Below, in pieces: positions 21,601 through 53,150 of a stretch of DNA of 64,000 nucleotides. This DNA is from Acarospora socialis (lineage: Eukaryota; Ascomycota; Lecanoromycetes; Acarosporales; Acarosporaceae). The position numbers and the translations under genes were made by a program. Below the pieces are notes generated by a model, which saw only the letters and a program-made list of their open reading frames with translations, ran no database searches and had not been told where the DNA came from. How positions within the stretch are numbered: the stretch's first letter is position 1; the number at the start of each line of letters is the position of its first letter. Where the stretch lies: positions 806,001 through 870,000 of the forward strand of contig JAMYGW020000004.1 of assembly GCA_025617375.2 (NCBI GenBank), written 5' to 3'.

Positions 21601-21751
21601 GCTCACAAATATAAGTGAAGATTATTAAGCTTAAAGCAATATTTTCTGACTCAAAGTGCACTTCAATCTCAATAAAACAGCTCTAAGCTCTCTGAGCTGC
21701 ATCACTTCACATATTCAATGAATATTTGAGCTGTTAATGAAGATGAGTGAC
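21601..21751. other. Junction sequence, unassigned
   Basis: AT-rich sequence between the end of recognisable Gypsy copy 2 and the 30-bp repeat array. Nothing is recognised in it. Confidence 0.4.
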
Positions 21752-22140
21752 TTGTTTGTTGAATGTGCAACTGAGTGACTTATAAATTGAAAATTTGAGA
21801 ATGAGAGACTTATTCATTGAACATGCAACAATGAGTGACTCATTCACTGAATCTTCAACAATGAGAATCTTGTTCACTGAACATGTGATTTTGTGTGTCT
21901 TGTTCATTGTACATGTGACAATGAGAATCTGATTCATTGTATATGTGATAATGAGAGTCTGATTCATTGAACATGCAATAATGAGAATCTGATTTGCTGA
22001 TTATGTGATGTTGTGTGCTGTGTTTATTGAACATGTGATGTTGTGTGTTGTGTTCATTGAACATGTGATGTTGTGTGTCTTGTTCATCAAACATGTAATG
22101 TTGTGTGCATCATTCATTGAACATGTGAAAATAAAATCAT
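21752..22140 (-). repeat. Minisatellite, 13 units of 30 bp
   Basis: Unit of the form GATTCATTGAACATGTGATAATGAGAGTCT-like words, spaced exactly 30 bp from 21781 to 22111, with one unit of 29 bp before. On the minus strand it reads as a 10-residue repeat (for example MFNEQDTQHH and MFNESDSHYH). The whole-codon period and exact phase suggest it was once coding. Two base patterns alternate, TTGTGTG and ATGAGAR. Confidence 0.85.
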
Positions 22141-22299
22141 GTTCAATTAATACTTGTTGATGACATAAGTGTATTCAATGTACTTATTGATTTACTCACA
22201 GAATACATGCACACATCATTGAGCTAATGTATGAATGTCAATCACAATACTGACTATACACACACTTAGAACAGAAAATCACTTCAAGATACTCTTGAT

Positions 22300-25200
22300 C
22301 TTGAACTAAACTATCTTTTTGACACTATTATCATTTCATATCTTTCACTTTTGACTGTTCTTCACATAATCATCATTTCTGCACAGCAAATTCTTTTGTG
22401 TAATAAAATTTACATCATCATTTTTGTCATTGTTCATCTCTCTGATTAAATCACTCTGATTAAAAGTGTTTAAATTTAAAGTTTATTGCAAAAGATGAGT
22501 TCTTCAATTCTGTTGATCATAAATGATCTTTTTAACTTTTAACTCAACACATTGTAAAGCATATATGATTGTCTGTGTTTTCTGCTTTATTCAGTTTATT
22601 TATTTCTTGACTTATTTATGATCATGATTCATTCACTCTGAGTCAATAATTATCAGTCTCTTTGCTCTGTATAATATATATTTTATTTTGATGAGTTTTG
22701 TGATGTCAACAATGTATTGAGAAAATAGTGTATTTAAGTTACATTTAATAGCTTTCAGCATCTTCTGAAACAATCACACAATCTTAATTAATCTGAATTT
22801 AAACAGTTCAAAGTGAATGAGAATCACTGAAGCTTTAAAAACTAAATGTATGTACTATATCAAAGTCAGCATCACTCTGATCATTTTTTTTGATGAAGTT
22901 AATACTGCATCAATTGATTATCAGTGCATATGTTTTCAACTTGTTCAGTATAAAACAAGAGCAACTGTAGAATTCATTGAACAAAATACTGCTTTCTTGT
23001 TTGATTTTTATTTCATTTAAATAAGATTGTTGATTGCATAAATCTTAATGAAGTTGTGATTTGTGCATATTTCAGCAATGTACTTTCATATAATGAATCA
23101 TATTGTACAAGCTTGTACAGACTTTCTTGCTTCATACAAAGTCAATCATTATCTCTGTCTTACTTTTCAGATAAACTCAGATCTTTTGTAGCTTTTAATT
23201 TTTTTAGCAATGAAAATGTACTTAAAACATGTAATTTTCTTATCATCTGCAGTCAGTCATTTACACTCATTGTTGACTGAACTCTCAGTTCATTGCTCTG
23301 TTCTTATATTTGTTGTTTTTTTTGAAGATCTTTCTTCATTTTGTCTGAGATGTTTGTAATTAATTTGTTGATGATATTGTAAAATTCAGATGATAATGAA
23401 TAGTCAACAATTTGATGTATATTGAGTAATACATCAGTTAGAGAATGATTGAAGAATGTAAACTGAGTTGTACTTTGCTTCATTCATAGAGTTTTGAGAA
23501 CTATTATCAATGATTTGATGTGCTGAGCTCTGACTGTTGAGTTTGACTTCTTGTTTTTCACAAAACATTTGTGTATTTTATTCAATTCTTGAATCTGACT
23601 CTCAGTGCAGTATTTCAGCTTTTTTTGATGCATTTATTTCTCTAATCAGTCAGAATAAGAAGCAGACTTAATTTAATAGATATTTTTAATGATATTGATT
23701 CATTCTGTCATCTGAATAGATAAGAATTTAAATGATGTGTCAGTAAGAAATCATTTTTTGAGAGTGAGATCAAAGATTGCAAACATACATACTCTTGTGA
23801 CAGTAAAGTTAATTTCAGTATGAGTTTTGTTGACAGCAACTCTTTTTCAGTCTATATCTCAAGATTTAATCACCAAAAACAGCACTTTTCTCTTTCTGAG
23901 TAATTTAAATGAGTGATTTATGTCTTGCATGATTGATTTCACATGATTATCATATGACTTCTTAATTATAATAATGATAATTTGTGACTGTCTAAACTGC
24001 AGATGCATAATATCATTTATATCAACTTAATGTTCAAAAAGACTTCAGTCTTCAGCAGAAAACTTCTTGACATGTATGTTTATCTTATTATTTCTGTATG
24101 CATGATGTACTTTTTATTTGATCAACTTGTTGTTCAAATTAAGATGTCTCTTAACTTTCTGCAATTAATTGAGAATTAAATCAGCTGAGATCACAATCAG
24201 ATTAGAATCTCATTAAGACTTCAGATAACTTGTTGAATTATTGTTAACACAAAAATATTTTATGTTGAACTTTCTGTCAGATAAACATTGTGTATTTGAT
24301 GACTAAGATGAAATGATTGTTTCTTAAACTAAATGTTTGTTGAACTGCTTATTCTTGTAAGCAGTTAAGACTTCTGCATGAGCTTTCTCAAGAGTTTGAT
24401 TTAGATAAATAACTCTCAACAACTTGATGATCTGTTCAGTAAATTCAGTGTTTACTTAAAAGATAATGAATCAGAATTGTTATCTATTTTTTTTTTTTTT
24501 CATGTCATTAGCATTGTACTCTTCTTCTTGAAACAATTTCATCTCAAACATTATGAATATCTCAAAAATCTGATACAGATATAATGAAGTGTGAAGCTTC
24601 AAAATGTGTATTTTTTCACTTGAGACAATGTTTGCTGAATTGTGAGAAAACAGTTGTGCACATCTTTGTCAGTGCTCTTTCTCATGAAGATGTTCAGTAA
24701 CTGTCAGCTTAATGTTTGTCACAAGTCTGCAAAATTCAGTTAGTCAAGTTCTCAATTTCACATTATTGAATCTAATATACTCTTCAGCTGTAGATGATGA
24801 CTTTAATTGATGAATTTTGATGCTTGAAATATCTTTTACAATATCATTGTGAAATATTGAAGTCATGTTGTCAGTGAGCTTAACTTTGAATGATCTCACT
24901 GATGTTGCTGATTCAGTAGTATTGATAATAAATACAAGCTTAAAAGTGTTGCTGATTGAAGCTATTGTTGCAGTACTCATTGAATTTGCTGTCAGTTGTG
25001 AATTTTTAGCATCAATAGTAGATGTTTTCTTTGCAGTATCATTGATTGTAGTTAATGTCATGATTGCTGTTGAATTTGCTGCTGCTTGTGACTTTGTAAC
25101 ATTGATGACAGATGTTGTTAAAATTACTGCTGCTTGAGTCTCTGTAACTTCAGCAGTAAATGTTGTTGAAGTTGCTGATGCTTGTGACTTTGTAGCTTCA

Positions 25201-26150
25201 GTAATAAATGTTGTTAAAGTTGCTGATGCTTGTAACTCTATGATCTTAATGATAAATGCTGTTGAAGTTGCTGCTGCTTGAGTCTTCATAACTTTGATGA
25301 TAAAAGCTGTCAAAGTTTTTGATGCTTATAACTCTGTAACTTTAATGATAGATGCTGTTGAAGTTGCTGATGCTCATAATTTTGTAACTTTGATAATAAA
25401 TGTTGTCAGAGTTGTTGATGCTTGTGACTCTATAGTCTTGATGATAAATGCTGTTGAAGTTGCTGTTGCTTGAATCTTCATAGCTTTGATGATAAAAGTT
25501 GTTGAAGTTTTTGATGCTTGTAACTCTGTAGCATTAATGATAGACTGTTGCTCAGAAGTATTATTGATGATAGTTATTATTGTGTTAGCTGTTGCAATGT
25601 TGTCAACAATGAGTTGTTAATTTTGCAAAATTCAGATATTATACTCATGATGCTGTTAAAAACATTCACTGAAGTTTGCTCTTCTGATGTATTACAATAC
25701 ATTATTTTTTGATTATGAAAATTTTTGTTTCTCAATCTTGCAGATAAACATGCTGTTTTTTGTCTTTGCTTACTGATCTTTTGATGCTTAATAGATTGTT
25801 TCAAGTTAAATCTGTAATTGTGAGATGCAATCTTGCTGATGTTCATTGTATTCACACTTTTGCTCAGTTCTATAACACATTTGATCAATATTGAGTGATA
25901 AAACACTAAAATAAAGTTATTTAAATAGCTATCTCATGTTCAAGAAATGTTTAAACTTACAAGTCTTCTTTAAAAAAATAACTTCAAACTTGATGTACAG
26001 CAATTCTCTTTGTCTGACATCAATAACAGCTGTATGAAACTTTCTATTTTTTTTTAATCTTTGTTTGAAAGTTTTTAAAGTTGTAGCTGATGATGTTATC
26101 TTTAATGTATTCAATATCTTCACTGAGTAACTTCTTTCACATTGCAAAGA
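22300..26150 (-). pseudogene. SNF2-type helicase relic A
   Basis: A hypermutated gene read on the minus strand. The C-terminal helicase part is recognisable at about 22500-22680 by AKRLIIIDSE, then INWIKQKTQTIIYALQC and VKKIIYDQQN. These correspond to the DPEW..HD, R-I-x-R-I-G-Q and VExxI blocks of SNF2 ATPases. Upstream (25313-24744) an N-terminal region contains ten 48-bp repeats, then a conserved segment with EEYIRFNNVKL. A second, similar relic lies at 38600-42500. Many stops make it a pseudogene. Whether it was a host gene or cargo of a mobile element is unknown. Confidence 0.6.
25072..25551 (-). repeat. Minisatellite, 10 exact units of 48 bp
   Basis: Ten units of 48 bp in exact phase (first at 25072, last at 25504), each starting GAAGTTGCTGATGCTTGT or a variant. 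On the minus strand each encodes 16 residues, for example TAFIIKIIELQASATL. It lies in the N-terminal part of SNF2 relic A. Confidence 0.9.
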
Positions 26151-27049
26151 ACAGTTAACTGCATTTGTCTCTCTCTGAATTCATATTGAAGAGTATAATA
26201 TTAAATATTGTGACTGAACTGAGCTCTGTGATTCTTTTAGTATGTAATATATGTTTTGTTTATATGCTGTAGGTCTCAGCTTCAGTCATGATTGATATTT
26301 TTTGTGATAAAATAATCATTAATGTAATGTAAAATATTGACTCTGTCTTCTCTGAAGTAAGCTTTGAAGTTGAGTGAGCTGTGCTTCTGACAAGTGAGTC
26401 TTTCTTTAAGTTTTTGAATTTTGATTTTCATCTTTTATTAATGAGTCTGTGTTGAATCAGAAACTTTATGCATGATTTAATGAATTTATGAGATTTATTC
26501 TTAAAGTAGTGTGTCAGCTGAGTGTAAAGTAGCTGTAACAATGATTTTATTGTTTTTTGACTCACATTGAATTGAAGATTTTTCAGATTTAATGCATACT
26601 CTTTTAGTCATTCATCAATCAGAATATTGATCTTATCTTTGTTGCTTGAGATTATAAGAATGATCTTTTATAACTGTGTGAGATTCTTTATTTTTAATTT
26701 CTCTTCATTTGTCAAGTTATCAGTGTGTTTGAGTGTAGTATTTCTCTTAGCTGACATAATGATATTATAAGATTTGAAGTTGAATCATCTGCAACAGTGA
26801 GAAAGCAATGTAGATTGATTTTAAATATTTGTAGTGAAGCAGCAAATTAGATGAAAAATTGAGTAAAATAAAATATGAGTTGATATGCAGCTGAAGTGTT
26901 ATCTCTTGTTTGATGTGTATTCATTGAAGAGCGAATTTGTAATAAAATGATGTGTATGTCTAAATGATCACTGCATAGAAGTTTGCACAGCTTTATAGTT
27001 ATTGTGTTGTGTTCATTGAATCTGTCATATGTTCAGTGAATGTTGCAAG
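26151..27049. other. Unassigned AT-rich sequence
   Basis: May be the N-terminal end or promoter of SNF2 relic A and the 3' flank of the UPF1-like relic. It has no independent landmark and contains the only clear CG dinucleotide seen in the island (about 26932). Confidence 0.35.
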
Positions 27050-28036
27050 TTTGAATTCATGATTTGACAAGATGCATATTTACTTAACTAAAGTAATCAT
27101 ATTTCATCATAATACACTACAGAAGCTCTTAATCATCTTGATAGAAATTGTTAAAAACATTATCAGAACTGTTTTAACTATCTTTTAGTTGTCAGTAATG
27201 TCACTTTAAACATTTTTACTCTTAACATCTCAGCTGAAATCAGAATCTTCTGATATATCATATAAAACTTACATGATAGTGAAAGAATTCAGAAGAGATA
27301 AATCTCAGTTATCAATGAGAACATTTAACTATGCATTGTCATTCTCATCAGAAATAAAGATATGTAATTGAAAACTGACTTCATCATTATGCATAAAAGT
27401 ATTCTGCTGAAAACTGATCTTGTTATTGTGCATAAAAGTATTCAGCTCAACATTGACATCATTATCAAGAGTAAAGATATCTGACAAAACATTGATGTCT
27501 TTGTTCTCTTTCAATGAAAAATTCAGAAATGAGTTATCTTTCATTTCTGTTTGTGTGTCAATCTCATTTTCAGTAAATGTTCAATCTTCTTTTTACATCA
27601 AAGTCTTATTGATCTTCACACTCTCAGACACACATGAGTTCTTTATTATGTTCTTGACTGCTTGAACTAATCTTAACTGCTTGAAGTGACTAATGAGCTT
27701 ATTCACTTAACAAGCAAATTCATGACTATCTTGACTCTTGTTGACAGCTATATTCATTATAATGATCATCTCATTCTGTGCTTTGATCAGAGCAATATTG
27801 AGTTTATTTATTTCATAAGTGAACTCAAGTCTCTTTGTGACAACTAAATTCAGAATGATGATGATAATTTCACTTTCTTGAAATAAGTTGATAATTTTGT
27901 TCTGAATTGCATGCAGATTCTTGTTCTTGAAGTTGAACTGCAGTTGATGAAGTGCATAATGATAAATCTTGTGTTGTGCTTGATAAGAAGAGATGATTGT
28001 CAGATTTTTTGATTTAAATTGCTTCAGTAACTTCTT
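27050..28036 (-). pseudogene. UPF1-like SF1 helicase relic, C-terminal part
   Basis: Minus-strand continuation of the relic at 34211-36759, separated from it by the Gypsy insertion. It shows the AAA_12-type tail of UPF1-like helicases: a LFQESE-x-IIIIL block (equivalent to the DxFQGxExDIIIxS motif V region) and LNIALIKAQN near 27770-27810 (equivalent to LNVALTRAR, motif VI). After this comes an acidic tail with two close repeats of NTFMHN (about 27380-27460). Heavily mutated. Confidence 0.65.
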
Positions 28037-28397
28037 TGTAACATTTTAACCTGAGCTTTCTTGAGTATGTAGAGCTAAGAGTTTATGCTTATTGATATAA
28101 TAACTGGTCTGAAATGGTTCTGAACTTTAACTCTTAGATAGTTACTTAAGTTGAACATGATTGTTTTCATAAAAGAAATGACTCTACTATATAGAACATG
28201 CTCAATGCTTCTGTGTTGAGCACTCTTGATGTTTTGATGTCTTAATGTCAAGAGATTGAGCTCTTGACTTGTCTGCTCATCATTGAGCTGTTATGCTGTT
28301 ACATAACTACTGTTTAGCAGTTCTCTTTGTATGTACTTCAGATGAACTCTTGATCACAGATCTGTGAGTTTCTTTCTTTCTTGATATGATCATAACA
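28037..28397 (-). repeat. Gypsy copy 3 3' LTR (361 bp)
   Basis: TGTAAC...CATAACA on the plus strand. Same length as its partner at 33850-34210; the differences seen are C/T or G/A. Confidence 0.93.
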
Positions 28398-28472
28398 TCA
28401 TTCTTTTTCTTCAGGTGCTAGTTCTCTAGAGTTTATTTAAGTGAGAGTATATAACAATTTCTATCATCAGCA

Positions 28473-28898
28473 ATGATGCTTTCTAAAAATTTCAATCATC
28501 TAAGAATTGCAAAGAAAATTCAGCTTAGTGATAGTCTCACTATATTCTTTTGTGAATTCTGTACTACTCATGATCTTGATTGCTTCATTATGATTGATGA
28601 AAGATCAAAATGTGATAAGTATACTCATTGTGATCATCTGTGCATTGCAATTTTGTGAAAGTCTCTCAACAGAACTTGTCTTTCTCTTCAAAAGAAAATA
28701 AGTGATGCAAATATAATTCTTGATGTTCTTGCTGTCAAGATAATGTATCTTCAAAAGACTTTAAATCAAACAGATCATCATACTGCACAGAAGATTAACT
28801 GTCTTGCTGCTGAACTTGATAGTGATAATGATGAAACTGAGAATGAAAATTCTCAAATAATGTCACAACTTATTAACTTGATGTTCTCATTCTTCTGA
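28473..28898 (+). pseudogene. Antisense frame of Gypsy copy 3
   Basis: Plus-strand frame opposite to the host element, between the chromodomain end and the 3' LTR. It starts MLSKNFNHLRIAKKIQLSD, then FFCEFC...CDKYTHCDHLC, a Cys/His pattern that could bind zinc, then a helical segment and an acidic ELDSDNDETENE stretch. The same frame occurs in the copies at 16891-17313 and 51360-50920. Such an accessory antisense gene is not a standard part of Gypsy elements. Decayed. Confidence 0.6.
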
Positions 28899-31800
28899 GC
28901 TAATGTCAACTTTTTTTCTCAAAATGTTTAAGCATTCTTGTGCAGTTCTTGAGATTAACTTTGAGTTCTCAGATATTTTCTGAGATATTGTAATCTTTTC
29001 ATTTTATGAGATAGTGAGTTTTCTCACTAATCATTCTCTTTTCTAAAATGTTCTCAACTTCATATTCTTTTTTGAGTTTGACAGATGTTTCAGTAATTTA
29101 AAGTGATATGAATTGATCACAATGCTGTAACATGAATGCATGAAATACTGAGTGTATTCTCATTTTCTTGAGTAAGTCTAGCTCATAGCTTATTTCTTTG
29201 ATGTTTCATATTATCTTGAATGATTCAATGCTCTTGTTCTTCAGCTTTTTGCTTTTTTCTTTGATTTTTATGTTGTTCATTCTCAGATATATCTTTTCTC
29301 TCTCTTCAAATAATCTTGCTCTTATTGTTTGTTCTGTCTGCTGTTCAATTCATTTTGTTAAATCTTAATGCAGTTTTTTCATCTGTGTGATGTTCAAAAT
29401 CACTTTTTGACTTTATGATCTATGTTCTTTGAGATCTTGTCATATCTCTGAGTTGTAATCATAGTTCATATAGAAAGATGTTTTTTCTGTGATCTTGTTT
29501 CTTGCATTGTTGTACACAAACTGTGTCATTAACAACAGTCATACTCAGTTGTTCTGATTTCTGTTGACATAGTGTTTCAAGTATGTTTTTACTGTCTGAT
29601 TCATTTGTTTGCTTTGTTCATTCATTTGTGAGTGATATGTCATTAACATCTTGTGTTTTATTCTGAGTTCTGCTGTAAGCATCTTTCAAAACTTGCTTGT
29701 AAACAGCTTGTTTCTGTTGATGATAAATTCTTTTGATAGTCTATGATTGCTAATCAATTTTTGCAGTATAATGTATGTCAATACTGATGCTGTTGCAGTT
29801 TTCTTGAACAAAATGAACATTGTGTACTTGATTAATCTGTTCACTATGATTAATATACTATTAAACTTCATTTCTCATGCTGAATTCTTGAACAGTGATA
29901 GCTTCATAATGAAGTTCATGATAACTGACTTTCATGATGTGTCTGATGCATTTAGTTGTGTTACTTTGTTGTATTGCTTGTTTTAATTGATTCTGTTTCT
30001 TTAACATGAATTATACACAGTGATCATTTTGATAATTTAATTTTTAAAATTGTTAATATTGTGTTTTCTTCACATTAAATCTTCAGTGCATTTAACTTTC
30101 AGATGTTTTTCAGTTCTACTGTAGTGATATATCTTTATGAGTTCTTTGTCTGTCAAGAAAGCTTGCTTCATCTTGTACATTGCTGCTAAGTCTTTCATGA
30201 GAACTCTGTTGTTGTCTTTGCTCAGAATTTTGATGTATATTATCTGTATGTCTTTATGATCAGATTGTCTGCTCAAGATGTCTGCTTCATTATTCTCATT
30301 ACTTTTCTTGTAATGAATCTGAAATTCATAATCTGTCAACTGTTCTGCTTAATGAATTTGTCATTGATTGAGTTGTTTTGTTGTTGTAAAGTTTCTCAGA
30401 TTCTTGTGATTCATGTAGATCTAAATTGACTTGCTTGTTTCTGCAAGATAAGATCTTTAATCTTGTAGTGCTTTTACTATTGCAAGAAGTTTCTTATTGT
30501 GAATCTCATATCTTTTCTCAGTTTCTGATAGTTTTCTAAATCAATATGCTATGAGTTTCTGTTGTTCTTTCTTAATCTAATATAAGTATGTATTTACTGT
30601 GAAATCTGAAGCATCAGTTTTTAGTGTCTTCTTGCATGTTGAATTGAGTATTCTTAGATGTGTCATTTCACTAAAACTTTTCTTTAATGCATGAAACACA
30701 TTCTTCTGCTTCTTATTTCAATGTTATTCTTTGCTCTTGTGTGTCAAATGCATTAGTGATTTCACAATTCTTGCATAATTTGATACAAACTTTCAATAAT
30801 AGTTTGTCAACTCTAGAAAGACCTGTACTTTCTTGATTCTCTTTGATGTTGATCAGTTTCTGACTGCTTTCATTTTTCTTAAATTTTTCTTGATCTGTTC
30901 AGATTGAATCACATAGTTTAGAAACTTAACTTTTTTAATTTTAAATCTGCTCTTTGATCTTTTCATATACAGAGCTCTTTTGTTGAGTCTTGTCAGTATC
31001 TTTTGCATGTGTTTACAATGCTCTTCAAGGTTTTCTGAATATATCAAAATGTTGTTGAGATACATGATTACAAAGTCATTTAAATATTCTCTCAACATGT
31101 CATTGATCAATCTCTGAAAGATGACTGAAGTGTTTTTCAACTTAAATAACATGATGATGTATTCATAATGTCTGTATCTTGTTCAGAATGTTGTCTTTCA
31201 TTCTTAATCTTCTTTCATTCTAACTTGATAGTAGACATTCTTGAGATCTAAACTCATGAATCATGTGACTTTTTCTAACTAATCTTGTAACTTTTCTATT
31301 AGTGGTAGAAAATAACTGTCTTGATAAGTTATCTTGTTGAGTTGTCTGTAGTTAACACATAGTCATTTTTTGTCATTCTTCTTTGATACAAATAGAATTG
31401 AGTATTCTGCTGATGACTTTGATGATTTTATGAATTCTTTCTTCAGATTCTCATCAAGATAAGTTTTAACTTTCTTGAGCTGGTTCTTGCTCATTGAGTA
31501 TAATGATATTCACTTAGATTGCTCTTTGTTCAATAGTGATATCTCATGATTTCATAATTTATGCTCTAATAAGCTCATTTCTGATTGTTCAGAAATCTTG
31601 TATGTGTTTTTGACTGCACATATCTCTTTCATAATTCAATCAATTTGTGAATTTCTTTCATGCAATCAGAGCATCTCTAGTACTGCATCATATCTGATCA
31701 ATTTTATAATGTTGAATGTTATCTCTTGTGAGTTTTCAAGAATCAAGACTTTCACATAGGTTTTCTCATCAATTCTTTTGATGACTTCATTTATTATGTG

Positions 31801-33849
31801 TATGTTAAATGAACAGTGCACTCATCATGTCATCAATTCTAACATATTGACTACTCATCTGTTTATAATGTTATTATTCACTTCAAAATTCATCAATGCA
31901 TTAATCTGATGTTCATTGATCATAATCTTGATTCATATTCAATGATCATTGTCTTGTCTTTGAGATGCCACTAGCTTCTTATTCTCTAGTCTCATCAAGA
32001 AAGCTCTTTGTTTTTTGACTCACTTAATCATTCAGCTCATCTTTAAAGTTCTTGAAATTATCTTGATTTTCTTTTGATCATAAGATTTGCATACTTTAAA
32101 CTATATTGCTCAATGCATTTTTCTGAGTGTAGTCAGAATTCATACTGATTATATTTTATCTGCAATTGACTCTTTAAGACTCTTACTCTTTGCAGAAATT
32201 CAAGTGATATATATTTTCTGCTGAAGATTCATCTGTTTTTATTTTGCATGATATATTTTTCAGATAAACATATCTCAATCTTGTGACTCTTTGTTCTTCA
32301 AACAAGAAATTTAAACAATATCATGTTGTTGCTGCTGAAACATTTGTCTTTAACAGCTGTCATCAGCTTCTCTAGCTGATCATATGTTTTTTGTGTCTTT
32401 GCATTTTTGTGTTGTGTCTTCTTTCTTTGAGCACTTAGATTCTCTTCAATCTTTGTTTGATACTTTCTTAAAAGCTCTGTCTTAATATTGTCTGAACTTT
32501 CTTCTGTGAGTGTATTGCTATTGAAAAATATTCATGATTTGTCAATCTGAAATTCATGATCATCAGTTTCTTCAATATCATCTTTGAGAGCATCTCTTTC
32601 TTTCTCAGCATCAAGAACTCTTTTTTTGATAAGAGTAGCTAATTCTTTCTTGTAGATTGATTAACTTGTCACATCATATCTGTTCTTTGTGTTCTTGCAT
32701 AATTTCTGAGAATATCATCTGACTCTGTTCTTTGCACTTATATGTGCTCAGCACATATCATCATAACAGACTGTTCAACTCAGAGCATTGTGCACTACAC
32801 TTGTTTTCTTTGTCTTTGTTTCAGTCATTACTGCTGCAATGTTTCTTCTTTTCATTTGAGATCTGTTGCACTCTTGAGTAAGATGTTCAGATTTTTCACA
32901 GTTGTAATACATTCACATTTTGTTTTGCAGTGTTATCTGAGACTTAGTGAATCACTCTGTCTGACATTCAGACTCTGCTTATCTAGTCTTTTATAACTTT
33001 TAATAGTGCTTCTTGATTGCATTGAGATTCATAGAATTTGTTTTTCTATATCTTGTCAATAAAACATATTGCTTCATTCACAGTCAGAAGCTTTCTTCTT
33101 GATCTTTTATCATAGATGACATTTAATATTTTTTTTGTTTCATCTGTTGTTTTTATTGACAACTGTCAATATTAATACTCAGATTAATCATTTTCTGAAG
33201 ATTGTCTGATTGTTCTGCTTGAGCTATTTTGTCTTTGATGAATTTTCTCAACTCACAATAATACTGATAAGTAAGTGCTTCATCATTTCATCTAATAAGT
33301 GTTGCTAACTGCTGAAACTCTGTAATATATACTGTTACTGATTTATTCTGTCACAAGATATAAACTCATTTCTCTACTGCTCTTTCTTTATCAATCACTC
33401 TGAAGACTTTTTTAAGTTTTTTCTTGAACTTGCTGAAGTTGTTGAACATGAACTTTATGTTGACATTGCATTCATTGTAACTTTTTTCTAGAAATTCATG
33501 TAGCTTGAAGTTCACTCAATCAAAGACTACATTCACTAAATAGATTGTCACAAACAATGTCTTCTTCTGATCAGTTTGAAACTTCAGTTGATTAAATTTA
33601 ATATACAGATTAAGCTTAGTCACAAAGACTTGCAGCTTTTCTCTCTCTTCATCAAAGATATTGAGTATCTAAATCTTTGATGCATTCACAGATAGTTGTA
33701 TCATCTGAGCTGACATCACTAATTGTGTCATCATTCTATTTGAGATAGATGATAGAGATGAGTTTGTTTGAACTTAATTCAAAAACAAAGTTGAGACATT
33801 CTTCTGTGTGTCAGACATTGTACTTGTTATATCATAAAAGTGTTCAAAG

Positions 33850-34210
33850 TGTAACATTCTAACCTAAGCTTTCTCAGATATGTAGAGCTAAGAGTTTATG
33901 CTTATTGATATAATGACTGGTCTGAAACAGTTCTGAACTTTAACTCTTAAATAGTTACTTAAGTTGAACATGATTGTTTTCATAAGAGAAATAACTTTAC
34001 TATATAGAACATGCTCAATGTCTCTGTGTTGAGCACTCTTGATGTTTTGATGTCTTGATGTTGAGAAATTGAGTTTTTGACTTGTCTGCTTGCTGTTAAG
34101 TCATTGTACTGTTATGTAACTGCTGTTTAGCAGTTTTCTTTGTATGTACTCTGAGTGAACTCTTGATTACAGACTTGTGAGTTTCTTTCTTTCTTAATAT
34201 GATTGTAACA
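33850..34210 (-). repeat. Gypsy copy 3 5' LTR (361 bp)
   Basis: TGTAACATTCTAACC...GATTGTAACA on the plus strand, followed by the TTCTT target duplication. Confidence 0.93.
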
Positions 34211-36759
34211 TTCTTCATGATATTCATTAAGACATTTGTGTTGACTAAATTGCAAGTTAAGTTTTCTATCAGATCTGTTCTTTTCTTAATATTCAGCATC
34301 AGTGCAAAATCAGTCATTTTATATTTTTTCTGCATGAAGTTCATCATTGTTTGTCTCAGTGAATGAGAAATTAAGTATGTAATAATGATGTTGATGAGTT
34401 CATTGTTGTAGAAGAGCTTGAAGCTGATTTTGAAGATGTTGAAGTTCATTTGATGCTGTTCAGTGAATATTCTTGATGAATGATCTAGTCATATGAAACA
34501 TATAAACAATGACATAGTCATCTGTTCTGTGAATTACTGACTAAAACTCATCTTATTAAGCACTGTCAGCTTCAGTTACTTGTGATCTTCAATCATCATA
34601 ATTGATGTTTGTGCATAGTGTGCAAAGATGATAATTGCATTGAGTTTGATCATCTTGACAGCTTCATTCATAAAGACAATTACTGATTTGAACACTGTGA
34701 ACAGTTTAGATGTGTCTGCATTGTTGATGATGCAGATCATGATGAATGTTATATGAAGTACATGCTTTTGTAGACTGATGAAAATCTTTTTAAATTGTAC
34801 TTGCTGCATGCTATTCAGATCATCATTGTTGTATAAATTATACTGTTCTTGAAATTTCTTTCAGTTGTCAGAGTCAGAGACAGCATGCAGAATTATATTG
34901 ATGATTTTTAATATTCAGTTTGTCAGATTATGCTCAATAAAACACACTTTCTTGTTCATAATGATCACTTCAGATTAATTCATGCTCTTATATATTTTAT
35001 AGATTGTTCTGATCATGTCAAAGTCTGTAAAAATACTCAGTTTTTCTTCATTAATGACTGATGAATGTGAATTATGTTCTTCTTTGATGATATTTCAGAT
35101 AATATTTTCTTTCATGTTCAGAGAATACAATCAAATAATGATTTTGTCTTTGATCTCAGTCTTTTTAAGTGCAGCTGTGTCAATTTTCTCAACAAGTTTA
35201 TCAATCATATTATTTGTAGAAGTTAATATCAAAACTTGATGTGCAATGAAGTCATTGTGAAGAAATAATTGTATCATCTTTGCACATCATCAGCTTTTGT
35301 TTATGCTTGATGATTTTTGTAGAATATTGATTTCATATAACAATGTTTGACAATAGATGAGTGTCTCTGTCTGTAATGAAGTGAGATTTAATGCTTTAAT
35401 TTAATAATCAATGATGTCTGACAGAATGCTGATGAAGATGTTTTTAGTTCAGACTTAAATGTAATCTGACTTACAAATTATTCTATGCATTTTATCTTAC
35501 TCATTTTGAAATATTCTTAGTGCATTGATCTGATGCTTGAGTACTTTATTTTGCAGAATCACTTGAATCTTCACTTTCATCTTGAAATTCTTTCAACATT
35601 CAGTTTGAATATTCTCATCAGTTTTGAAGTGATGTGAGATTGCTGTCAACAGTTTGTCTTTGTAGTCTTCACTCTTGCAGTTTCAGAGTCTACAAAAAAT
35701 AATGAATGTTTGATCAGTCTGCTCAAATGATAAATGTTTAACAATAACTGCATTTCAGTTTTCTGCACAATCATCAATCTCAGCATTGAAATTAATGTGT
35801 AATGTTTCATCTTGATCAAATCTCATTAATATATTCTTCAAACTGTCTATCAAAGTCAGATAGCAGTGCATTTCTTTATTTGATACAGTGATGATTTGTA
35901 AAGTAAAAAAGAATGTTTAAATATTCTTGACTTGATCAGTAATGATTTTGTGCTCAGTTATAACTTTAAATTTCATGATTGTGATTCATTCTGAAGTAGT
36001 TAAAAACAAAATTTAAGATAATAGCTTGATCAGAGATCAATATTCTGAAAATGCAGTTTGATTTAACTGAACAAAATGTTTACTTAAGTGAACTAAATGT
36101 CATGCATTGAGCAGATTATTGATTCTTTTTACTTTTATGATGTCAAGAAACTCATTGACATCTTCAGTTATGTCTGTCAAACTATGCATGTATAACTTGA
36201 GAATGATTTCTTGAAAAATCTCTTGAAGCTTTTCAATAATAGTGCTCAGATCTGTATGTTCAGTGATGTTGATTCACAGTTGATTGAAAATCACTTTTTT
36301 GAATTTAAATGACACATTAACTCAGTATATAAGACTCTCTTCATTGATCTGCTTCATCTTTGCAATATTTTTAATGCTTAAAGAAAGAAGTTCTGACTGC
36401 ACAAACTTCTTAATTACATTTCTGTTTAGAATGATGTCACTTTTGAGTTGAATAACAATGATCTGATTGTCTGTGCTCTTTTTTTTTAAGATGATTTGAA
36501 TTTAAAGAATTGACTTTCATTCATGAGTCAAATTGAACATGAGAAAGATGCAACAATATAAGATGTCACTGTGAATAAACTGATCAAGATCTGAAGTATT
36601 CTCTGTTTTGTCTTTGTAGATAATGATGATTTTATATTTGAAAGAGTCTTGTTTCACATCTTTGTCATCTGAGTAATAAGCATTCTTGTCAATCTTCTCA
36701 GTCTTGTTGACTTTAAACTTTTTCTTTGTCATGATTATATTATTATAAACTGATTGCAA
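34211..36759 (-). pseudogene. UPF1-like SF1 helicase relic, N-terminal and core part
   Basis: Minus-strand relic of a superfamily 1 helicase of the UPF1/NAM7-like (AAA_11) kind. In order it shows a Walker A position near 35300-35330 (SSSINKS, degraded from a GPPGTGKS-like motif), LILTSTNNMIDKLVEKID (equivalent to the APTNAAVD block) near 35190-35245, VIVFMNEAVKM (the DEA box region) near 34650-34690 and MIEDHKQLKLTVL (the GDxxQLxP region) near 34560-34600. A block around FTEQHQMN (Q-x-R-M equivalent) follows. The N-terminal 400 residues are conserved-looking but unassigned. The coding sequence is split by Gypsy copy 3, and its C-terminal part continues at 28036. Heavily mutated. Confidence 0.7.
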
Positions 36760-37261
36760 TTTAGAAGTGAGATATGACTATAATGTGTAACTGTGAGCTT
36801 TGAGCATGATGTGTAGATGTAAGAAATACAAACTCACAAAATATAAACATGAGCTTTGTGAACTTCTGAATGTGAACTATAAATGTGAACTTTAATCATA
36901 AGATTTGAAGATAAGAAGTAGAAACTTACAAGATATGAAATGAGATATAAATGTCAGTCTTGAATGAAATGTTCAGATGTGACATATGAATGTAAGCTTT
37001 GAATGACAAGTTTAGATGTAAAATATAAAGATGAGCTTTAAATGTAATATTTAGATGTGAAGAAATGAAGTAAACTGATGAAAAGAAAGTGATAGTTGAA
37101 GTAGATGACTGTTTGTTTTAGTTCTTTGCTGAGAAATAAGTGCAATGTGTTAATAATGTAAGTGATTAAAGTGAATATTATATGAATCATTCAGCACAAA
37201 ACAAGTTCATATTCAACAAAATCATATTAAAGACACAAGAGTAAATCTGCACAGATCAATG
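36760..37261. other. AT-rich gap with TGAACTTT/TGAGCTTT repeats
   Basis: Between two minus-strand relics; probably the promoter of the UPF1-like relic. At about 36780-37060 imperfect copies of a roughly 55-65 bp unit (AATGTRAGCTTTGAATG...GATGTGAGA) recur about five times. No coding sequence is recognised. Confidence 0.4.
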
Positions 37262-38506
37262 TTAGAATATCAGTTCACAAAAGAAGTAAAGAGTTGTTAA
37301 ATATATGAAGTTTACTTGATCTGTGATTCTATATGATGTGAAGATTAGTTTTGTTTTATTGAAGATTCTATTTAATGTGACTTGCTTGATTAACTTTCTA
37401 TTGTCTTTGCATGAAGAGTTTATCTTTGTAAATAGTGATGATAGATTCAATGCTTTAATGATAGCTTGAATATTCTGCTCAGAGTTCTAATATATTTAAA
37501 TCATTTGCAAATCAAACATTATTAAAAGTTAAGACTGCAAACAGCTCATTGCACACAATTTTGAGTAGCTAACAGAAATAAATCTATTCATATCAAAGAT
37601 ATCATCAGTCATTATGTTCTAGAACATCAACATTCAATTTTTATATGAATTGAACAGCTTATCAATGAATTTGCAGTGTTTCTTGTTGAAAGTCATAATG
37701 TATCTGATCATACAAGTTCATAACATGAAGCTTTTAGAATGAAAAATCTTTCTTGATTTGTTTCAAATATTCATTACTTGTTCTTCTGTGTACTCTTGTT
37801 CTGAAGTTTATGATTTGTTGATGTTGTAAATTGTACAGTGAAACAGTTGCTTTTGCTGATGAGTGAATGCTGAATATATTGTTTTGCTCATTGTGTAATT
37901 CTAAATTCTTTTTAACTTCAATCTTCAGACTCTTTGTGTTGTACAGTACATTGTGACTGTCATTGCTAATCTCTGATAAATGTATTGAGTTAAATGTTCA
38001 AACATGATATGAGTGTTCTTGATGCATCTTTGACTTGTTTTGTCACTATGTTGTGAATATATAATTCATAAATTCTTCTTTTGTACTTGATCTACAGCAG
38101 TCATGTGCTATAATCTCAACATCTTGTTCTGCTTTCTTAATTGAGCATAGAGTCTGATGATGCTCAGATAGAAGTCATGTGTAAGTGCATCATTAATGAT
38201 ATTAATTATGCTCTGAGTATTGTCAATCTTCTATTCAGTCAGTTTGAAATTAACAATCATCTTAGTGATTGCAAGTGAAACTTTTGATATAATGCTGTAG
38301 TTATAACTATGTGAAGTATAATTCATTGAACTATGTTTTCTGATCAATGAATCATGATCTTTGTTCATTGAATTATGATCTAAATTCATTGAACTTTATT
38401 CTCTGTTTCTTGAATTATATTATGATTTACTCTGTTGTACATGTAATCTTCAGTTTTGAGTCAGTAAGTGAGTGAAAGATTTATTTTGATCTTTATTCAT
38501 TGACAT
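37262..38506 (-). pseudogene. Relic of unknown gene with short N-terminal repeats
   Basis: Minus-strand coding-like sequence of about 415 codons, starting MSMNKDQNKSFTHLL and ending at a clear stop at 37262. The N-terminal part has degenerate 10-residue repeats (HNSMNKDHDSL, REQSSMNLD) that resemble the 30-bp minisatellite at 21752-22140. The rest is basic and alpha-helical in character; I do not recognise the family. It sits between SNF2 relic B and the UPF1-like relic, the same side of a SNF2 relic as the 30-bp array at 22 kb. It contains several stops. Confidence 0.4.
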
Positions 38507-38599
38507 TTTTGAGAATTCTTCTATTGAATCATTTATCACAAATGCACTTGCAGTGAATATGAAAAGTAAGTAGTTGCAGTTAGCTAGAATATCATGCAG

Positions 38600-41500
38600 C
38601 TATATAGTGCAACAAAATATGTGATTTGACACTGATTTGAAGATCTCATCATTAACTTAAATCTCATCTGCACTCTCTTCTTTCTCAATTTCATTGTTTT
38701 TCTCAATGATCTGCAGATCATCATTCTCATTGTTGTTTATCTTTCTCTTAATTATTGCTTGAATGAACTGATCAGAATCTAGAGTCAGTTTTATGAGATG
38801 TGTTCTTTGATTTTATTGATTGTAAATGATTTTCTTGACTTTGAAGCTCACACACTGTAGTGTATAAATGAACATTATCTTTTGTTGATCAATTCTGTTA
38901 ATTTGCTTCTTTGTTTATTTTTAATCATGTTTTATTCATTTAGAATCAAGTTAAATTAGTTGTTTAACTCTATACAGTGTGTATTTAACTCTGATGAGCT
39001 TGATGATGCTTACAATATATTGAGAAAGTGTTAAGACTGAATATCTGATCATGATGTTTGACTCTTTTTGAAATAGTCACACAATGTTTATAATATTTAA
39101 TTTTAACATTACTTCATGAATAAAAACAATCAGAGTCTTCAACACAAGTCTGAAATACTGATGAGAATCAATATGATTTCATTTGAGTTGCTTTATGTTA
39201 AAGCTTGATGTTATTAATGAAATTGAACATACTCAGTACAGAATCAATACATTTGTTGAGTTCATTGAACAGAAGACTGTCTTCTCATCTTTATTTCACT
39301 TTTTAATTCTGTCATTGATGATTTTAATCTTTGAACAATTGATCTTTGAACATATATCTGCAATATGTCTTTCATAGAAGAGTTTGTGTTTTTTAAACTT
39401 GTACAATTGTTCTGTTCTTATATGCACTCAACTTTTTTCTTAATCTTCTGTGTTCAAGAAGATAAGTGACTTGATGATGTTTAACTCTTTCAGTCATGAA
39501 AAACTGCTCAAAATTCTGAGATACTGCATCAAAAACATTCAATGATTGACTGTAATAGTTGACTTCACATCTATATGATTCTTGACAATTCACTTTGCTT
39601 TTACATTTATCTAATTTCTCTTTAACTGATCTGTTATGATCATTAGTGAAGAGTTTACAAGTTTTATGAATTTGACAGATAGTAAGCAGTTAATAATGTA
39701 ATAAATATTGATGATAATATTGATCAGAAGATTGTCAAAAAATGTAAACTGATTTGCACTTTATTTGAGTCATAAAGTTCTGAGAATGTCTGACAGTGAT
39801 GTAATATATTGATTGATGACTTTCTGATTGATTTTCTTTTTGATAATAATGTAATTATATGTTTTTCTCATTTAATGAAGTGAGTGTGCAGTGCAGAGTA
39901 AAAGTTTAACACAATATGTATCTCTTTCTGATCAGTTAGTGTATTGCTGTGACTTAATTTATTTTTTAGTTTTAAAAGTTGCAATTCAGTCTGTCATCTG
40001 AGCAGATGATTGCTCAAATGAAGTGTTAGTCAAGAATCACTTGCATATCTCAACATTTTTGAACAGTTAAATCATTTCAGACATGAATATCATCTCAAAA
40101 TGAGTCTCATCTGTGATGACTCTATCTCAGTCAATCTTTCAATATCTATGCACAGAAGCTGACTGCTTTCTATTTCTTAATGACTTTGATGAATAGTGAA
40201 TATCTTTCATAATGTTCTGAACATAATCTTTATACAATTTTCTTGTAGTGATCACAATGATACATGACTGTTTAATAGTATTTCAAAGATTGACAGAGTT
40301 GTTCACAAAATAAAATTAACATTCTATCAATGCTCAATTCTCTCTGAAGAGCTTAGAAGTGAGTTTGTTTATCTTTGTATCATCATAAGCATGTCTCACT
40401 ACTCATTTCTCAAGCTGATTATTGAGATTCAAATGTGTTCAAGTCTCTTGAAGTCAATTAGAGACAAGAATGATTAATATCACAATTAAATTGACTTCAA
40501 ATTGTGATATCATTTGATGAGTCAAACTACTGTCAATACACAGACACAATATTCTTCATTGTGTGTCAGAAGAACATTTTACATCTTTAAATTGAGAATT
40601 TTCAACAGTTTCTCTAGACAGATGTCAATGAAACTGTTATTTGTTACAAGACTGTTAAATCTTCAAATGAATTACTTTCAGAATATAATTCAGACAGATG
40701 AGTGCTAACATTTCTATTGTTTAATTACAAGATCAACTTAATGTTTCATGATTTGAGAAGAAGAATCATATATCTTTTTCAGACTCATGTCATTCACATT
40801 GTAACTGCTGTTCTGAAACATCTTTATCTCAAACATTATAAACACATTAAAGATCTAATAAAGAAATAGAGAAGTCTGTAACTCTGAGATATGAATTCTT
40901 TCATTAAATATTGTCTTGAAATGATCATGTAAGAAGAATTTACAGTATTATTGTCAACAATCTGAGTCACTAAGATGTTCAGTCACTACAAGCTTAATCT
41001 TTGTCATCAGTTTATAGTGTTTTATTAGTCAGAACTCAAATTTCACAATATATTAGACAACTCACTGCTCTGTAATAATCTTTACAACTTTTTCTGACAT
41101 AATGATGTTTAGATTTTCTGTAATATCTGTTTTAACAGTTATGTCATTGTTTGTTACTTAAATGTTAAGCTGATTCAATGAATCTGCTTGAATATTGAGT
41201 TAATTTGATGAATTTGTGAAAACATTAAACTGCTTTGATGAATCTCTAAAGAGAGTAAACTGCTTTGATGAACTCTTCAGAACATTGAACTGATTCAATG
41301 AATCTATGAAAACATTGAACTGATTTGATGAATTTATAAAAATATTAAACTAATTTGATGAACTCTTCAGAACATTGAGTTGATTTAATGAACTCTCTGA
41401 AATGTTGAGTTGATTTGAGAAGCTTGTGATGATTGACTGTGAATTTCTCAACATTTCATGAATATTTACTTCAGTCATGATGCTGTTATCTGATTCAACA

Positions 41501-42500
41501 GTCTCAATAACTGATCTCTTTGTTGTCTTGTGTTCTTCTTGAGAAGTTATTAATTATTTTTCTTGTCTGACTGATTCTAAGTGTGTGAATATAGTATTAT
41601 TATCATCATTATTTATCAACAATATTCTTTGTAATTCTTGTTAAGTGAGAAGCATGAAAGCAGAATCTACATAGAAGATTAACTTGCTTGAGTGCTGTTT
41701 ACATATATATGTACTCATGAGCAGTGAATGAAACAGTGATGTTGAACATGATATATGAGAGTTTTAGATTTTAAGCATCAAGTAAAACAGTGCAAAACTG
41801 TCTGTTCTGATTTATGTGCAGTAAATTGTTGATGAAAGCATATCTGATTGTGTGAAATTTAGTATAGTTAACATTTTGATGTAAAATATTGATTCAGAGT
41901 GTGAACAATATCTGAATAAATAAACTCTTGTTTTCTTGTTGTAAGTCTGACAGAACATTCTTAAAAGTGATAATACTTAACTTGAAAGTGCTGTTCAAAC
42001 ATTCAGTATTGAGATCTTATAGAATATGTGTTTGTATATCAAAGTTCTTAATGTTGATTGCTGTCAATACTGAATTGAATGTTAATGTGATGAAATGTTG
42101 TCTGATGTTCACTTCTTTTGATATGATTAAGATAGTGAGTCATGATTCAATTCAATTTTTATCAGCATAACACATATTCAACAATTTTCACTGAATCACA
42201 AACTTCATGACAGCTCTGATATAGATAGACTTCTTATTTAGAAATAGATTTTCATACTCATTATAGATAATCTTGATCAGAGATCTCAAGACTGTTTTTT
42301 TGATGTTTGACTTCATGTTAATGATGTTGAGCTCATTATTTTTGAGTCAGTTCTTGATCATACAGTTCATCTGCTCAATATTGACTTACTTTAAAGAAGT
42401 AATCTTCAAAACTTAAGTCATATTGACAAAAACTGAGTTATCTGAATCAATCTCATTCTCATTATGTCTCAGTGTTGTATCTTGTTTTGTCAACATTGTA
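38600..42500 (-). pseudogene. SNF2-type helicase relic B
   Basis: Second minus-strand relic of the same kind as relic A. The C-terminal helicase region at about 38800-39000 shows INRIDQQ and IYTLQCVSFKVKKIIYN, corresponding to the RINRIGQ and following block of SNF2 ATPases. Nucleotide similarity to relic A is visible over the C-terminal third. Upstream, nine exact 30-bp repeats (41161-41430) take the place held by 48-bp repeats in relic A. A further N-terminal block lies at about 41650-42250 (for example LTTRKQEFIYSDIVHTLNQ). Heavily mutated. A paralogue, not a recent duplicate, because the repeats differ. Confidence 0.55.
41161..41430 (-). repeat. Minisatellite, 9 exact units of 30 bp
   Basis: Nine 30-bp units in exact phase, of the form AACATTGAACTGATTYRATGAATCTATGAA. 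On the minus strand each encodes 10 residues, such as FIDSLNQFNV, a pattern that could form a coiled coil. It lies in the N-terminal part of SNF2 relic B. Confidence 0.9.
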
Positions 42501-44039
42501 TATTATAAGAAAACTGCAAATGTCAGATGGCACAGCTTTGAGAAGTAAGTGAAAGAAAGTATGAGTGATTATATATGACAAGTTTTCTTTAACTGAATCA
42601 TCATCATTTTAAAAAATTAAATGCAAGCAGCACATAAAGAGTTAAAGTTAATGCATTCAATAATACTTTAATCTCAGAACAGAATGTCAAACATTAATTT
42701 ATGTACAGTCAAACTTTGTTCACAGCATAATGACTTGTTCAGTGAACATAACTCATGTTCATTGAACTTCACAATCTATCATAACATCATGAATCTCTCT
42801 CAACTGTCATTTAAGAGTTCATGAATTATAGAATCTATTGTGCACATGAGTCTCTGTTGATGAGAAGTCAGCTTGTTTTGTTATAAAGATAGACACTTGA
42901 CTCATACATATTCTCTAAATAAACTGATCTTGCATTAACAACTTCTTTCAATTGTAATTGTCTCAACAGTGTTGAACATGACTCTCTGATATTTATAGAT
43001 ATTTAAAGAAATATTTTGATCATATTACAATTCAATTTCTCAGAACTATGTCACTTGCAGATCAATCTCATTCTGAAGTAAGATGTACACTTTTTTATTC
43101 AATTCACATTGCACTGAATACAGCATATTCTTCTTTTCAAGACAAATTCTGAGTCTGCTGTAGCATCAGAAAGTATGTATAAAATATATAATTGCATAGA
43201 CATCATCAGATCATCAAGACTAAAGTGTACTTTAAATGTGTGAATGTTGAACTGAAAAAATTATTAATACATACTTAATCATAATGCAGCAAAATTGATT
43301 CAACACAATCTGCAGTCACAAGCATATTAGTTATGTTACTATAAATTGAGTAATGATTGTATGATGCAACAGATTATATCTACAATAGCTGAATATATTA
43401 ATGACTGAGATTGACAATTATGAAGTGCTTAATCAATGATGACATGATTGACATTGAAATAGTACAAGCACTTCATGACTAAAGCACTTTTCATCATATG
43501 AACTGCACTTATATTTCACTCAATCATTCTGTGAAGTTCATTGAACATTATGTAGAGTTCATTGAATCTATTATATCAGTTATTTTCATCATTCACTGTT
43601 CTGTGAGCAAGACATCTTCTTAGTTATGTATTAAGTTTGTAATTACTGCAATAAGAAAGTGAGCAACATCAGTGAATTAAAACATCACATAATGAAATGT
43701 TCTGTTCTACTGCATGATCAATCTTAAAGAATTCTCAAAAACAAAATGTCATCAAATGCATAATCATCAGAGTACACTGAACATGACAGTAAAGATACAT
43801 TGATTGATGAATTATTTCTGACTTGAGTAGAGAATAATTGAAAGATGAATATGAATTCTCTCATCAATGAGTTTGATGCTTCAGAGACAAATTTCTTGAT
43901 TAACATTAAAGACTCAATAATTCTTTATAGTGAGTCAACAACTTATGTATCAGACAATAAACAGACATCTTACACAGAACAGACAATCAATCTATAATGT
44001 CAATGCAGTTTTCTGTCAACATCATCAATCATTTAAGTG
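42501..44039. other. Unassigned AT-rich sequence
   Basis: Between SNF2 relic B (minus) and the Plavaka relic (plus). It may hold their 5' ends; I recognise no landmark. Confidence 0.35.
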
Positions 44040-53140: not shown

Positions 53141-53150
53141 TGTGTGCTTG

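What the first reader, a model, noticed from the sequence alone, without database searches (positions are those of the whole stretch)
21752..42500. Cluster of helicase gene relics in repeated order on one strand
Reading the minus strand from right to left: SNF2 relic B, an unknown repeat-bearing gene, a UPF1-like SF1 helicase, SNF2 relic A, then a repeat-bearing region with a 10-residue period. The SNF2 plus repeat-bearing arrangement occurs twice, with related sequences but different repeat arrays. Two helicase classes in one module suggest either a subtelomere-like helicase family or the cargo of a large mobile element; the Plavaka-type transposase relic next door fits the second idea. The module order is seen; its mobility is inference.
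Basis: partly seen in the sequence, partly recalled or inferred. Interest (0 to 1): 0.75.

Follow-up and report, generated by a model that had tools for sequence, protein, structure and literature searches.

The report
Mutation-killed fungal helicase gene cluster
A stretch of fungal DNA holds the heavily mutated remains of three neighbouring helicase-type genes, one of them later cut in two by a retrotransposon; such wrecked helicase clusters are known in fungi, but the mutation pattern here is unusual.

Summary
A 40-kb AT-rich island (13.0-53.4 kb) was saturated by C-to-T mutation: CC, CG and GG are nearly gone, CA is not. On its minus strand lie two old paralogous relics, B (38.7-41.4 kb) and A (22.4-25.6 kb), each with its own N-terminal repeat array, and between them a UPF1-like SF1 helicase. 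The UPF1-like identity is firm (AAA_12, E 2.5e-7). SNF2 identity of A and B is moderate: Pfam and HMMER miss it, but profile-profile comparison with a computer-degraded SNF2 model beats 700 of 700 shuffles and places motifs I, Ia and V/VI in order. Transversions between A and B pile up at third codon positions, so both were working genes. Not in the finding: a Ty3/Gypsy retrotransposon (28037-34210) splits the UPF1-like gene. No terminal repeats, Plavaka or captain domain was found, though decay could hide them. Best reading: a RIP-type-inactivated helicase gene cluster like X3X3R8 of Parastagonospora nodorum, but with a UPF1-like gene. Mobility is untested: no fungal genome was searchable.

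The parts
13041..53416 (.). AT-rich island saturated by C-to-T mutation; CC, CG and GG nearly absent
   Evidence: GC 0.26-0.37 in the 41 1-kb windows from 13001 to 54000 against 0.46-0.63 outside; 5 CC, 1 CG and 10 GG in 16001-48000
38700..41133 (-). Relic B, SNF2-like ATPase core, pieces in two frames
   Evidence: paralogous to A; hhalign against degraded SNF2 profile 34.8 alone, 32.7 with A
41165..41434 (-). 10-residue tandem-repeat array, N-terminal and in frame with the first piece of B
34216..36450 (-). UPF1-like helicase relic, N-terminal part (motifs I and Ia read by eye, start of the AAA_12 domain)
   Evidence: PDB hits of 34151-36399 are three NAM7/Upf1 chains, E 0.05-0.1; AAA_12 positions 3-106 at E 0.84; 8 of 745 codons are TAA/TAG in frame against 28 and 35 of 744 in the others
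28037..34210 (-). Ty3/Gypsy chromodomain retrotransposon inserted in the UPF1-like gene; LTRs about 28037-28397 and 33850-34210
   Evidence: Retrotrans_gag 4.7e-5 at 33261-33446, RT_RNaseH 7.5e-20 at 30328-30627, SH3_Tf2-1 1.8e-11, Chromo 8.6e-6; LTRs 87% alike
28032..28036 (.). Target-site duplication TTCTT, left copy
34211..34215 (.). Target-site duplication TTCTT, right copy
27560..28036 (-). UPF1-like helicase relic, C-terminal part (end of the AAA_12 domain)
   Evidence: AAA_12 positions 98-193, E 2.5e-7, 30.9 bits against cut-off 27; degraded UPF1 model E 1.1e-9
27369..27462 (-). 13-residue tandem repeats in the frame of the UPF1-like C-terminal part
24970..25590 (-). 16-residue tandem-repeat array, N-terminal and in frame with A
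22400..24890 (-). Relic A, SNF2-like ATPase core, pieces in two frames
21743..22128 (-). 10-residue tandem-repeat array below A, in another frame than A's C-terminus; perhaps the start of a third gene cut off by Ty3 sequence at 21580
   Evidence: third gene is inference
18592..21580 (+). 5' part of a Ty3/Gypsy copy of the same family
   Evidence: 79% to copy 1 over 3003 aligned positions
16456..18580 (-). 3' part of a Ty3/Gypsy copy of the same family
   Evidence: 81% to copy 1 over 2145 aligned positions
49998..51792 (+). Ty3/Gypsy copy with two LTRs, lacking most of its inside
15493..16188 (-). Ty1/Copia reverse-transcriptase relic
   Evidence: RVT_2 E 2.3e-20
43635..43694 (+).
   Evidence: zf-C2H2 E 0.017, under cut-off

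Best explanation
This is the wreck of an old cluster of fungal helicase genes: two divergent paralogous SNF2-like ATPases with repeat-rich N-terminal extensions and a UPF1-like SF1 helicase, all reading the same way. Shown: the paralogy, the in-frame repeats, the UPF1-like identity, third-position excess between A and B (so both evolved as working genes), saturating C-to-T mutation, and a Ty3 insertion that split the UPF1-like gene. Inferred: that the cluster existed in several copies, which is what exposed it to a RIP-type process; that the living proteins moved along DNA (SNF2 type) and unwound nucleic acid 5' to 3' (UPF1 type), as known for these families; and that the locus is now inert heterochromatin. 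No present function is likely.
For: UPF1-like: AAA_12 E 2.5e-7 over the curated cut-off; degraded-model E 1.1e-9; with the two flanks put together one alignment of the native model runs through the insertion point in frame, E 3.3e-6, best of 500 shuffles 0.03. SNF2-like: hhalign score 32.7 against at most 28.6 in 400 column shuffles and 27.8 in 300 block shuffles; the three local alignments fall in order on motif I, Ia and V/VI; a UPF1 profile as control scores 17.4. Former genes: transversions at codon positions 1, 2, 3 are about 143 of 809, 122 of 806 and 235 of 806 on a DNA-level alignment (counts recovered from the rounded rates), p about 1e-12; TAA/TAG are fewer in the relic frames than in the other two in all 7 stretches counted, clearly in the long ones, weakly in 22400-23067 (7 against 13 and 9). 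RIP type: 47 of 47 LTR differences of Ty3 copy 1 and 45 of 46 of the deleted copy are transitions. Order of events: residual CC/CG/GG 12 in 6175 bases of Ty3 copy 1 against 6 in 27246 of the island outside Ty3 copies, p 1e-5. Precedent: X3X3R8, nine copies of a RIP-damaged cluster with tandem Rad5/SNF2-like helicases in S. nodorum (PMC3017866, passages, discussion).
Against: No second copy of the module could be sought, so its multi-copy state is inferred. SNF2 is not seen by Pfam or above noise by HMMER with native or degraded models (the native model's best is B at E 1.6, at the motif VI place), although a real SNF2 gene degraded in the same way is still found at E 7e-80; so A and B are divergent or further decayed, not merely mutated. 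A alone scores only 19.7 in hhalign, within the range of shuffles of the pair. The AlphaFold model of B was useless (mean pLDDT 34.3).
Confidence: 0.62

Rival explanations
1. The helicases are cargo or machinery of a large DNA mobile element (Starship-like, Plavaka-like or a new kind) that moved as a unit and was then destroyed by RIP.
For: Same orientation of three unusual genes; saturation of the whole island, including 15.8 kb (34.2-50.0 kb) with 1 residual CC/CG/GG in which no known transposon was recognised; a weak C2H2 finger on the other strand.
Against: No module-wide terminal inverted repeats or target duplication found; the only strong edge pair is a 52-nt direct repeat whose two copies differ in mutation state. 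No Plavaka, captain or other DNA-transposase domain listed in the scanned frames; decay could hide one.
Confidence: 0.15
2. A, B and the UPF1-like gene are host pseudogenes that lay near retrotransposons and were mutated by leakage from these repeats; the cluster never acted or multiplied as a unit.
For: Ty3 and Copia sequences are scattered through the island; leakage of RIP beyond repeats is known (general knowledge).
Against: The 15.8 kb between Ty3 copies at 34.2-50.0 kb is as saturated as the rest, further than leakage is usually reported (general knowledge); A and B are paralogues in the same orientation.
Confidence: 0.15
3. A and B are not SNF2 proteins but another repeat-bearing family that resembles a few helicase motifs.
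For: Plain Pfam and HMMER searches miss them; PDB searches with the two A/B profiles gave 0 hits and 1 hit to a potassium channel at E 0.32.
Against: Motif order and shuffles.
Confidence: 0.12
4. A subtelomeric telomere-linked helicase family.
For: Helicase relics in mutated, repeat-rich DNA.
Against: The telomere-associated family in the S. nodorum paper is RecQ (PMC3017866, passages); gene-bearing DNA on both sides; 0 telomere-like matches.
Confidence: 0.03

Closest known systems
X3X3R8 repeat of Stagonospora (Parastagonospora) nodorum, Dothideomycetes (PMC3017866)
   Same: RIP-damaged cluster with tandem SNF2-like helicases next to genes of unknown function
   Different: X3X3R8 has Rad5-like helicases and a Rad6-like ubiquitin-conjugating gene in nine copies, and RIP in that species is CpA-dominant (PMC2621366, passages); here a UPF1-like helicase is present, no ubiquitin-conjugating match was listed, copy number is unknown, and CpC/CpG rather than CpA is exhausted
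SNF2-family ATPases (PF00176 with PF00271)
   Same: order of motifs I, Ia and V/VI; further motifs and Trp positions read as TGA by eye
   Different: too divergent or decayed for Pfam; repeat-rich N-terminal extension
UPF1/NAM7-like SF1 helicases (PF13087)
   Same: AAA_12 domain; NAM7 chains as the only PDB hits
   Different: 13-residue tandem repeats at the C-terminus; broken
Ty3/Gypsy chromoviruses (Tf2-like)
   Same: gag, RT-RNase H, SH3_Tf2-1 and chromodomain order, LTRs, 5-bp target duplication
   Different: ordinary member; the copies here are mutated
Repeat-induced point mutation
   Same: almost only transitions between LTRs, AT-rich island, repeats hit
   Different: CpC and CpG exhausted while CpA and CpT are only partly hit; the passages seen report CpA, CpT or CpG signatures, and S. 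nodorum repeats show CpC and CpG depletion together with CpA loss and TpA gain

Membership tests
SNF2-family ATPase (A and B) | significant match to the family profile | tested here: inconclusive
   Pfam and HMMER: no match; profile-profile against degraded SNF2 beats 700 of 700 shuffles
SNF2-family ATPase (A and B) | motifs in the order I, Ia, II, III, IV, V, VI (order recalled) | tested here: inconclusive
   I, Ia and V/VI placed in order by hhalign; II, III and IV only read by eye in the translations
Rad5/HLTF-type SNF2 | RING finger between motifs III and IV (recalled) | tested here: inconclusive
   4 Cys in A and 5 in B over 253 residues, 7 His in each, counted without spacing; no RING match listed by Pfam
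UPF1-like SF1 helicase | AAA_12 domain above curated cut-off | tested here: met
   30.9 bits against 27
UPF1-like SF1 helicase | Walker A helicase domain upstream | tested here: inconclusive
   read by eye near 35300; no Pfam match for 34905-35639
Ty3/Gypsy chromovirus | gag-pol domain order, LTRs, target duplication | tested here: met
Classical RIP | transition damage of repeated DNA | tested here: met
   47 of 47 and 45 of 46 LTR differences in two copies; 350 of 402 and 548 of 611 between more distant copies
Classical RIP | CpA-to-TpA preference (TA excess, CA/TG loss) | tested here: not met
   TA 0.61, CA 1.57 and TG 1.64 of expectation in 16001-48000
X3X3R8-type cluster | tandem SNF2-like helicases plus a ubiquitin-conjugating gene, several copies | tested here: inconclusive
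   two SNF2-like relics, not adjacent; no ubiquitin-conjugating match listed in the scanned frames; copies not searchable
Plavaka transposon | Plavaka transposase domain (PF18759) | tested here: inconclusive
   0 of 6 frames of 41.4-50.0 kb match at E up to 1; the model is in Pfam; but such scans missed A and B too
Starship | DUF3435 tyrosine-recombinase captain at one end (recalled) | tested here: inconclusive
   not listed in the scanned frames, which leave out some Ty3 parts; decay could hide it
Any large DNA transposon | terminal repeats and target duplication around the whole module | tested here: not met
   old or short ones could be missed
Telomere-linked helicase | RecQ type at a chromosome end | tested here: not met
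   no RecQ match listed; no telomere repeat; genes on both sides

The most novel reading that the evidence does not exclude
The module is an undescribed multi-copy, possibly mobile, gene set that coupled two repeat-bearing SNF2-like ATPases with a UPF1-like helicase, in a fungus whose repeat-mutating machinery exhausts CpC and CpG instead of CpA.
Probability: 0.15. Interest if true: 0.72.

Novelty: new variant of a known kind. Interest (0 to 1): 0.4.

Why it matters
It shows that a reading by eye can recover divergent helicase relics that standard profile searches miss. If the CpC/CpG pattern holds genome-wide, it would depart from the CpA preference reported for most Ascomycota and would make the target choice of the RIP methyltransferase directly testable. 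A helicase cluster that is multiplied and destroyed raises the question of what such clusters do.

Tried and rejected
Plain Pfam scans of the three minus frames of 22.6-42.5 kb found the Ty3 element but no helicase; short pieces found the UPF1-like C-terminus only. A motif pattern scan was uninformative. HMMER with native and degraded SNF2 models did not find A or B above noise; I then used profile-profile comparison, so the SNF2 claim rests on a second, more sensitive method after the first had failed. PDB searches with the A/B profiles failed. An AlphaFold model of B read through its stops (mean pLDDT 34.3) was not used for a fold search. The UPF1 reference script failed (empty reference set, stale output) and was replaced, in which 7 of 11 chosen references entered the model; there the degraded model scored the joined site badly (E 130) while the native model gave E 3.3e-6 for the joined site, 2.2e-6 for the left piece alone and 0.47 for the right piece alone. 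Considered and not adopted: subtelomere family, Plavaka, Starship. Literature searches for SNF2 with UPF1, Plavaka, Starship or helicase clusters listed no such element in the rows shown: 20 of 22, 15 of 36, 10 of 66, 0 of 0, 12 of 24; these were read as listings, with passages of PMC12730594 and PMC10799480.
Full report
Setting. The window looks fungal and no whole genome is held for it. In the 1-kb windows from 13001 to 54000 the GC content is 0.26-0.37, against 0.46-0.63 outside. In 16001-48000 there are 5 CC, 1 CG and 10 GG dinucleotides; CA stands at 1.57, TG at 1.64 and TA at 0.61 of expectation. The flanks look normal and carry ordinary genes: of 10 open frames given to Pfam, 7 matched, with SH3, ENTH, a cytosine/purine-type permease and PhyH on the left, and VBS-like, Spa2/GIT and an intact ERCC6L2-like SNF2 gene (58761-61673) on the right. 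The island is thus inside gene-bearing DNA; 0 telomere-like matches were found.

Mutation. Damage is of the RIP kind. The two LTRs of Ty3 copy 1 differ at 47 of 362 aligned positions, all transitions, 28 in CpA and 19 in CpT context; in the deleted copy 45 of 46 LTR differences are transitions (25 CpA, 15 CpT, 5 CpC); between copies 1 and 2 it is 350 of 402 and 548 of 611. CpC and CpG are almost exhausted. Classical RIP in Ascomycota prefers CpA (PMC2621366, passages; PMC4352252, passages), with CpT and CpG signatures also reported; S. nodorum repeats are depleted in CpC and CpG as well, but together with CpA and with a gain of TpA. I saw no report of CpC and CpG exhaustion with CpA in excess, in the passages read or in the rows listed (17 of 17, 15 of 33, 1 of 1). 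That is not proof of absence. One consequence (simulated): Trp becomes TGA, Gly, Pro and many Arg and Ala codons change, which weakens profile searches.

Nested retrotransposons. A Ty3/Gypsy chromodomain element lies at 28037-34210 on the minus strand: gag (E 4.7e-5), RT_RNaseH (7.5e-20), SH3_Tf2-1 (1.8e-11), Chromo (8.6e-6). Its LTRs are 87% identical and TTCTT stands on both sides. Pieces of a second copy lie at 16456-18580 and 18592-21580 in opposite directions, and an internally deleted copy at 49998-51792. Residual CC/CG/GG are 12 in 6175 bases of copy 1, 16 in 1795 of the deleted copy, 0 in 5114 of the split copy, and 6 in 27246 of the remaining island. So copy 1 and the deleted copy look younger than their surroundings (inference). 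A Copia reverse-transcriptase relic lies at 15493-16188 (RVT_2, E 2.3e-20).

UPF1-like gene. The stretch 27581-28057 matches AAA_12 at E 2.5e-7, profile positions 98-193; 34151-35040 matches positions 3-106 at E 0.84. The Ty3 element sits between. Putting the two flanks together with one target copy keeps the reading frame, and one alignment to a native UPF1-type model then runs through the insertion point (E 3.3e-6; best of 500 shuffles 0.03). The left piece alone gives 2.2e-6, or 1.1e-9 with the degraded model, the right piece alone 0.47; the degraded model scored the joined site badly, E 130. The only PDB hits of 34151-36399 are three NAM7/Upf1 chains, at weak E-values of 0.05-0.1. TAA/TAG codons number 8 of 745 in this frame against 28 and 35 of 744 in the others.

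SNF2-like relics. A and B are paralogues: 37% identity over one aligned block and 46% over another. The 16-residue array lies in the frame of A's core, and the 10-residue array in the frame of B's first core piece (frames worked out). Plain searches do not see SNF2, nor does HMMER above noise with native or degraded models; the native model's best in the pair is B at E 1.6, at the motif VI place. As a control, the window's own ERCC6L2-like gene degraded in the same way is still found at E 7e-80 with the native and 2e-93 with the degraded model, so this mutation alone does not hide an ordinary SNF2 protein. The profile of A and B against a degraded SNF2 profile (30 bacterial proteins and the host gene) scores 32.7; the best of 400 column shuffles is 28.6 and of 300 block shuffles 27.8; B alone scores 34.8, A alone only 19.7, both at the same place. 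The three local alignments of the pair fall in order on motif I, Ia and V/VI. Motifs II, III and IV I read by eye in the translations. I call A and B divergent SNF2-like ATPases with moderate confidence. No RING-like Cys cluster is evident between motifs III and IV (4 and 5 Cys in 253 residues).

Were they genes? On a DNA-level alignment, transversions, which RIP does not make, number about 143 of 809, 122 of 806 and 235 of 806 at codon positions 1, 2 and 3 (rates, counts recovered from them; p about 1e-12). Ty3 copies compared over 1 kb show only 14 transversions (5, 8 and 1 by position), too few for a firm control, and their transitions show no third-position excess in the first of three frames. 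A and B most likely diverged as working genes and were destroyed later.

What it is. The best reading is a dead helicase gene cluster. The nearest precedent is X3X3R8 of S. nodorum, nine copies of a RIP-damaged cluster with tandem Rad5/SNF2-like helicases and a ubiquitin-conjugating gene (PMC3017866, passages, discussion read). Here a UPF1-like gene is present and no ubiquitin-conjugating match was listed. Saturation of 34.2-50.0 kb (1 residual CC/CG/GG), where no transposon was recognised, suggests that this DNA was itself repeated; that is inference. Mobility is not shown: no terminal repeats found around the module, no captain or Plavaka domain listed; but scans of this kind also missed A and B. 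Pfam scanning left out the Ty3 parts at 16.45-21.58 and 50.0-51.8 kb on both strands and the plus strand of 28.04-34.21 kb.

Verdict. The finding is a good catch that is partly confirmed; it is a variant of a known kind. The retrotransposon inside the UPF1-like gene and the CpC/CpG mutation pattern are the main additions.

Noticed in passing
13041-53416: CC, CG and GG are almost absent over 40 kb while CA is in excess: a RIP-like process with an unusual CpC/CpG target choice.
   Followed up: partly
49998-51792: Ty3 copy with both LTRs but about 4.4 kb of internal sequence missing, and the most residual CC/CG/GG per base of the three copies: a likely non-autonomous and youngest copy.
   Followed up: partly
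16456-18580 and 18592-21580: The 3' and 5' parts of a Ty3 copy lie next to each other in opposite directions, suggesting an inversion or two truncated insertions.
   Followed up: no
15493-16188: Ty1/Copia reverse-transcriptase relic at the left end of the island.
   Followed up: no
14200-14251 and 53432-53483: 52-nt direct repeat near both edges of the island, 92% alike; the left copy is mutated, the right copy keeps its GGG and CC.
   Followed up: partly
53147-53371: 45-nt tandem array just inside the right edge of the island; none of its three minus frames is free of stops.
   Followed up: no
13010-13018 and 53370-53378: ATACTAGAA occurs near both borders of the island; too short to call a target duplication.
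   Followed up: no
58761-61673: Intact ERCC6L2-like SNF2 gene on the minus strand of the right flank, an ordinary host gene, used as a control.
   Followed up: yes
24483-25325: 281 codons without TAA or TAG across the repeat array towards relic A, the longest such minus-strand stretch in the island.
   Followed up: yes
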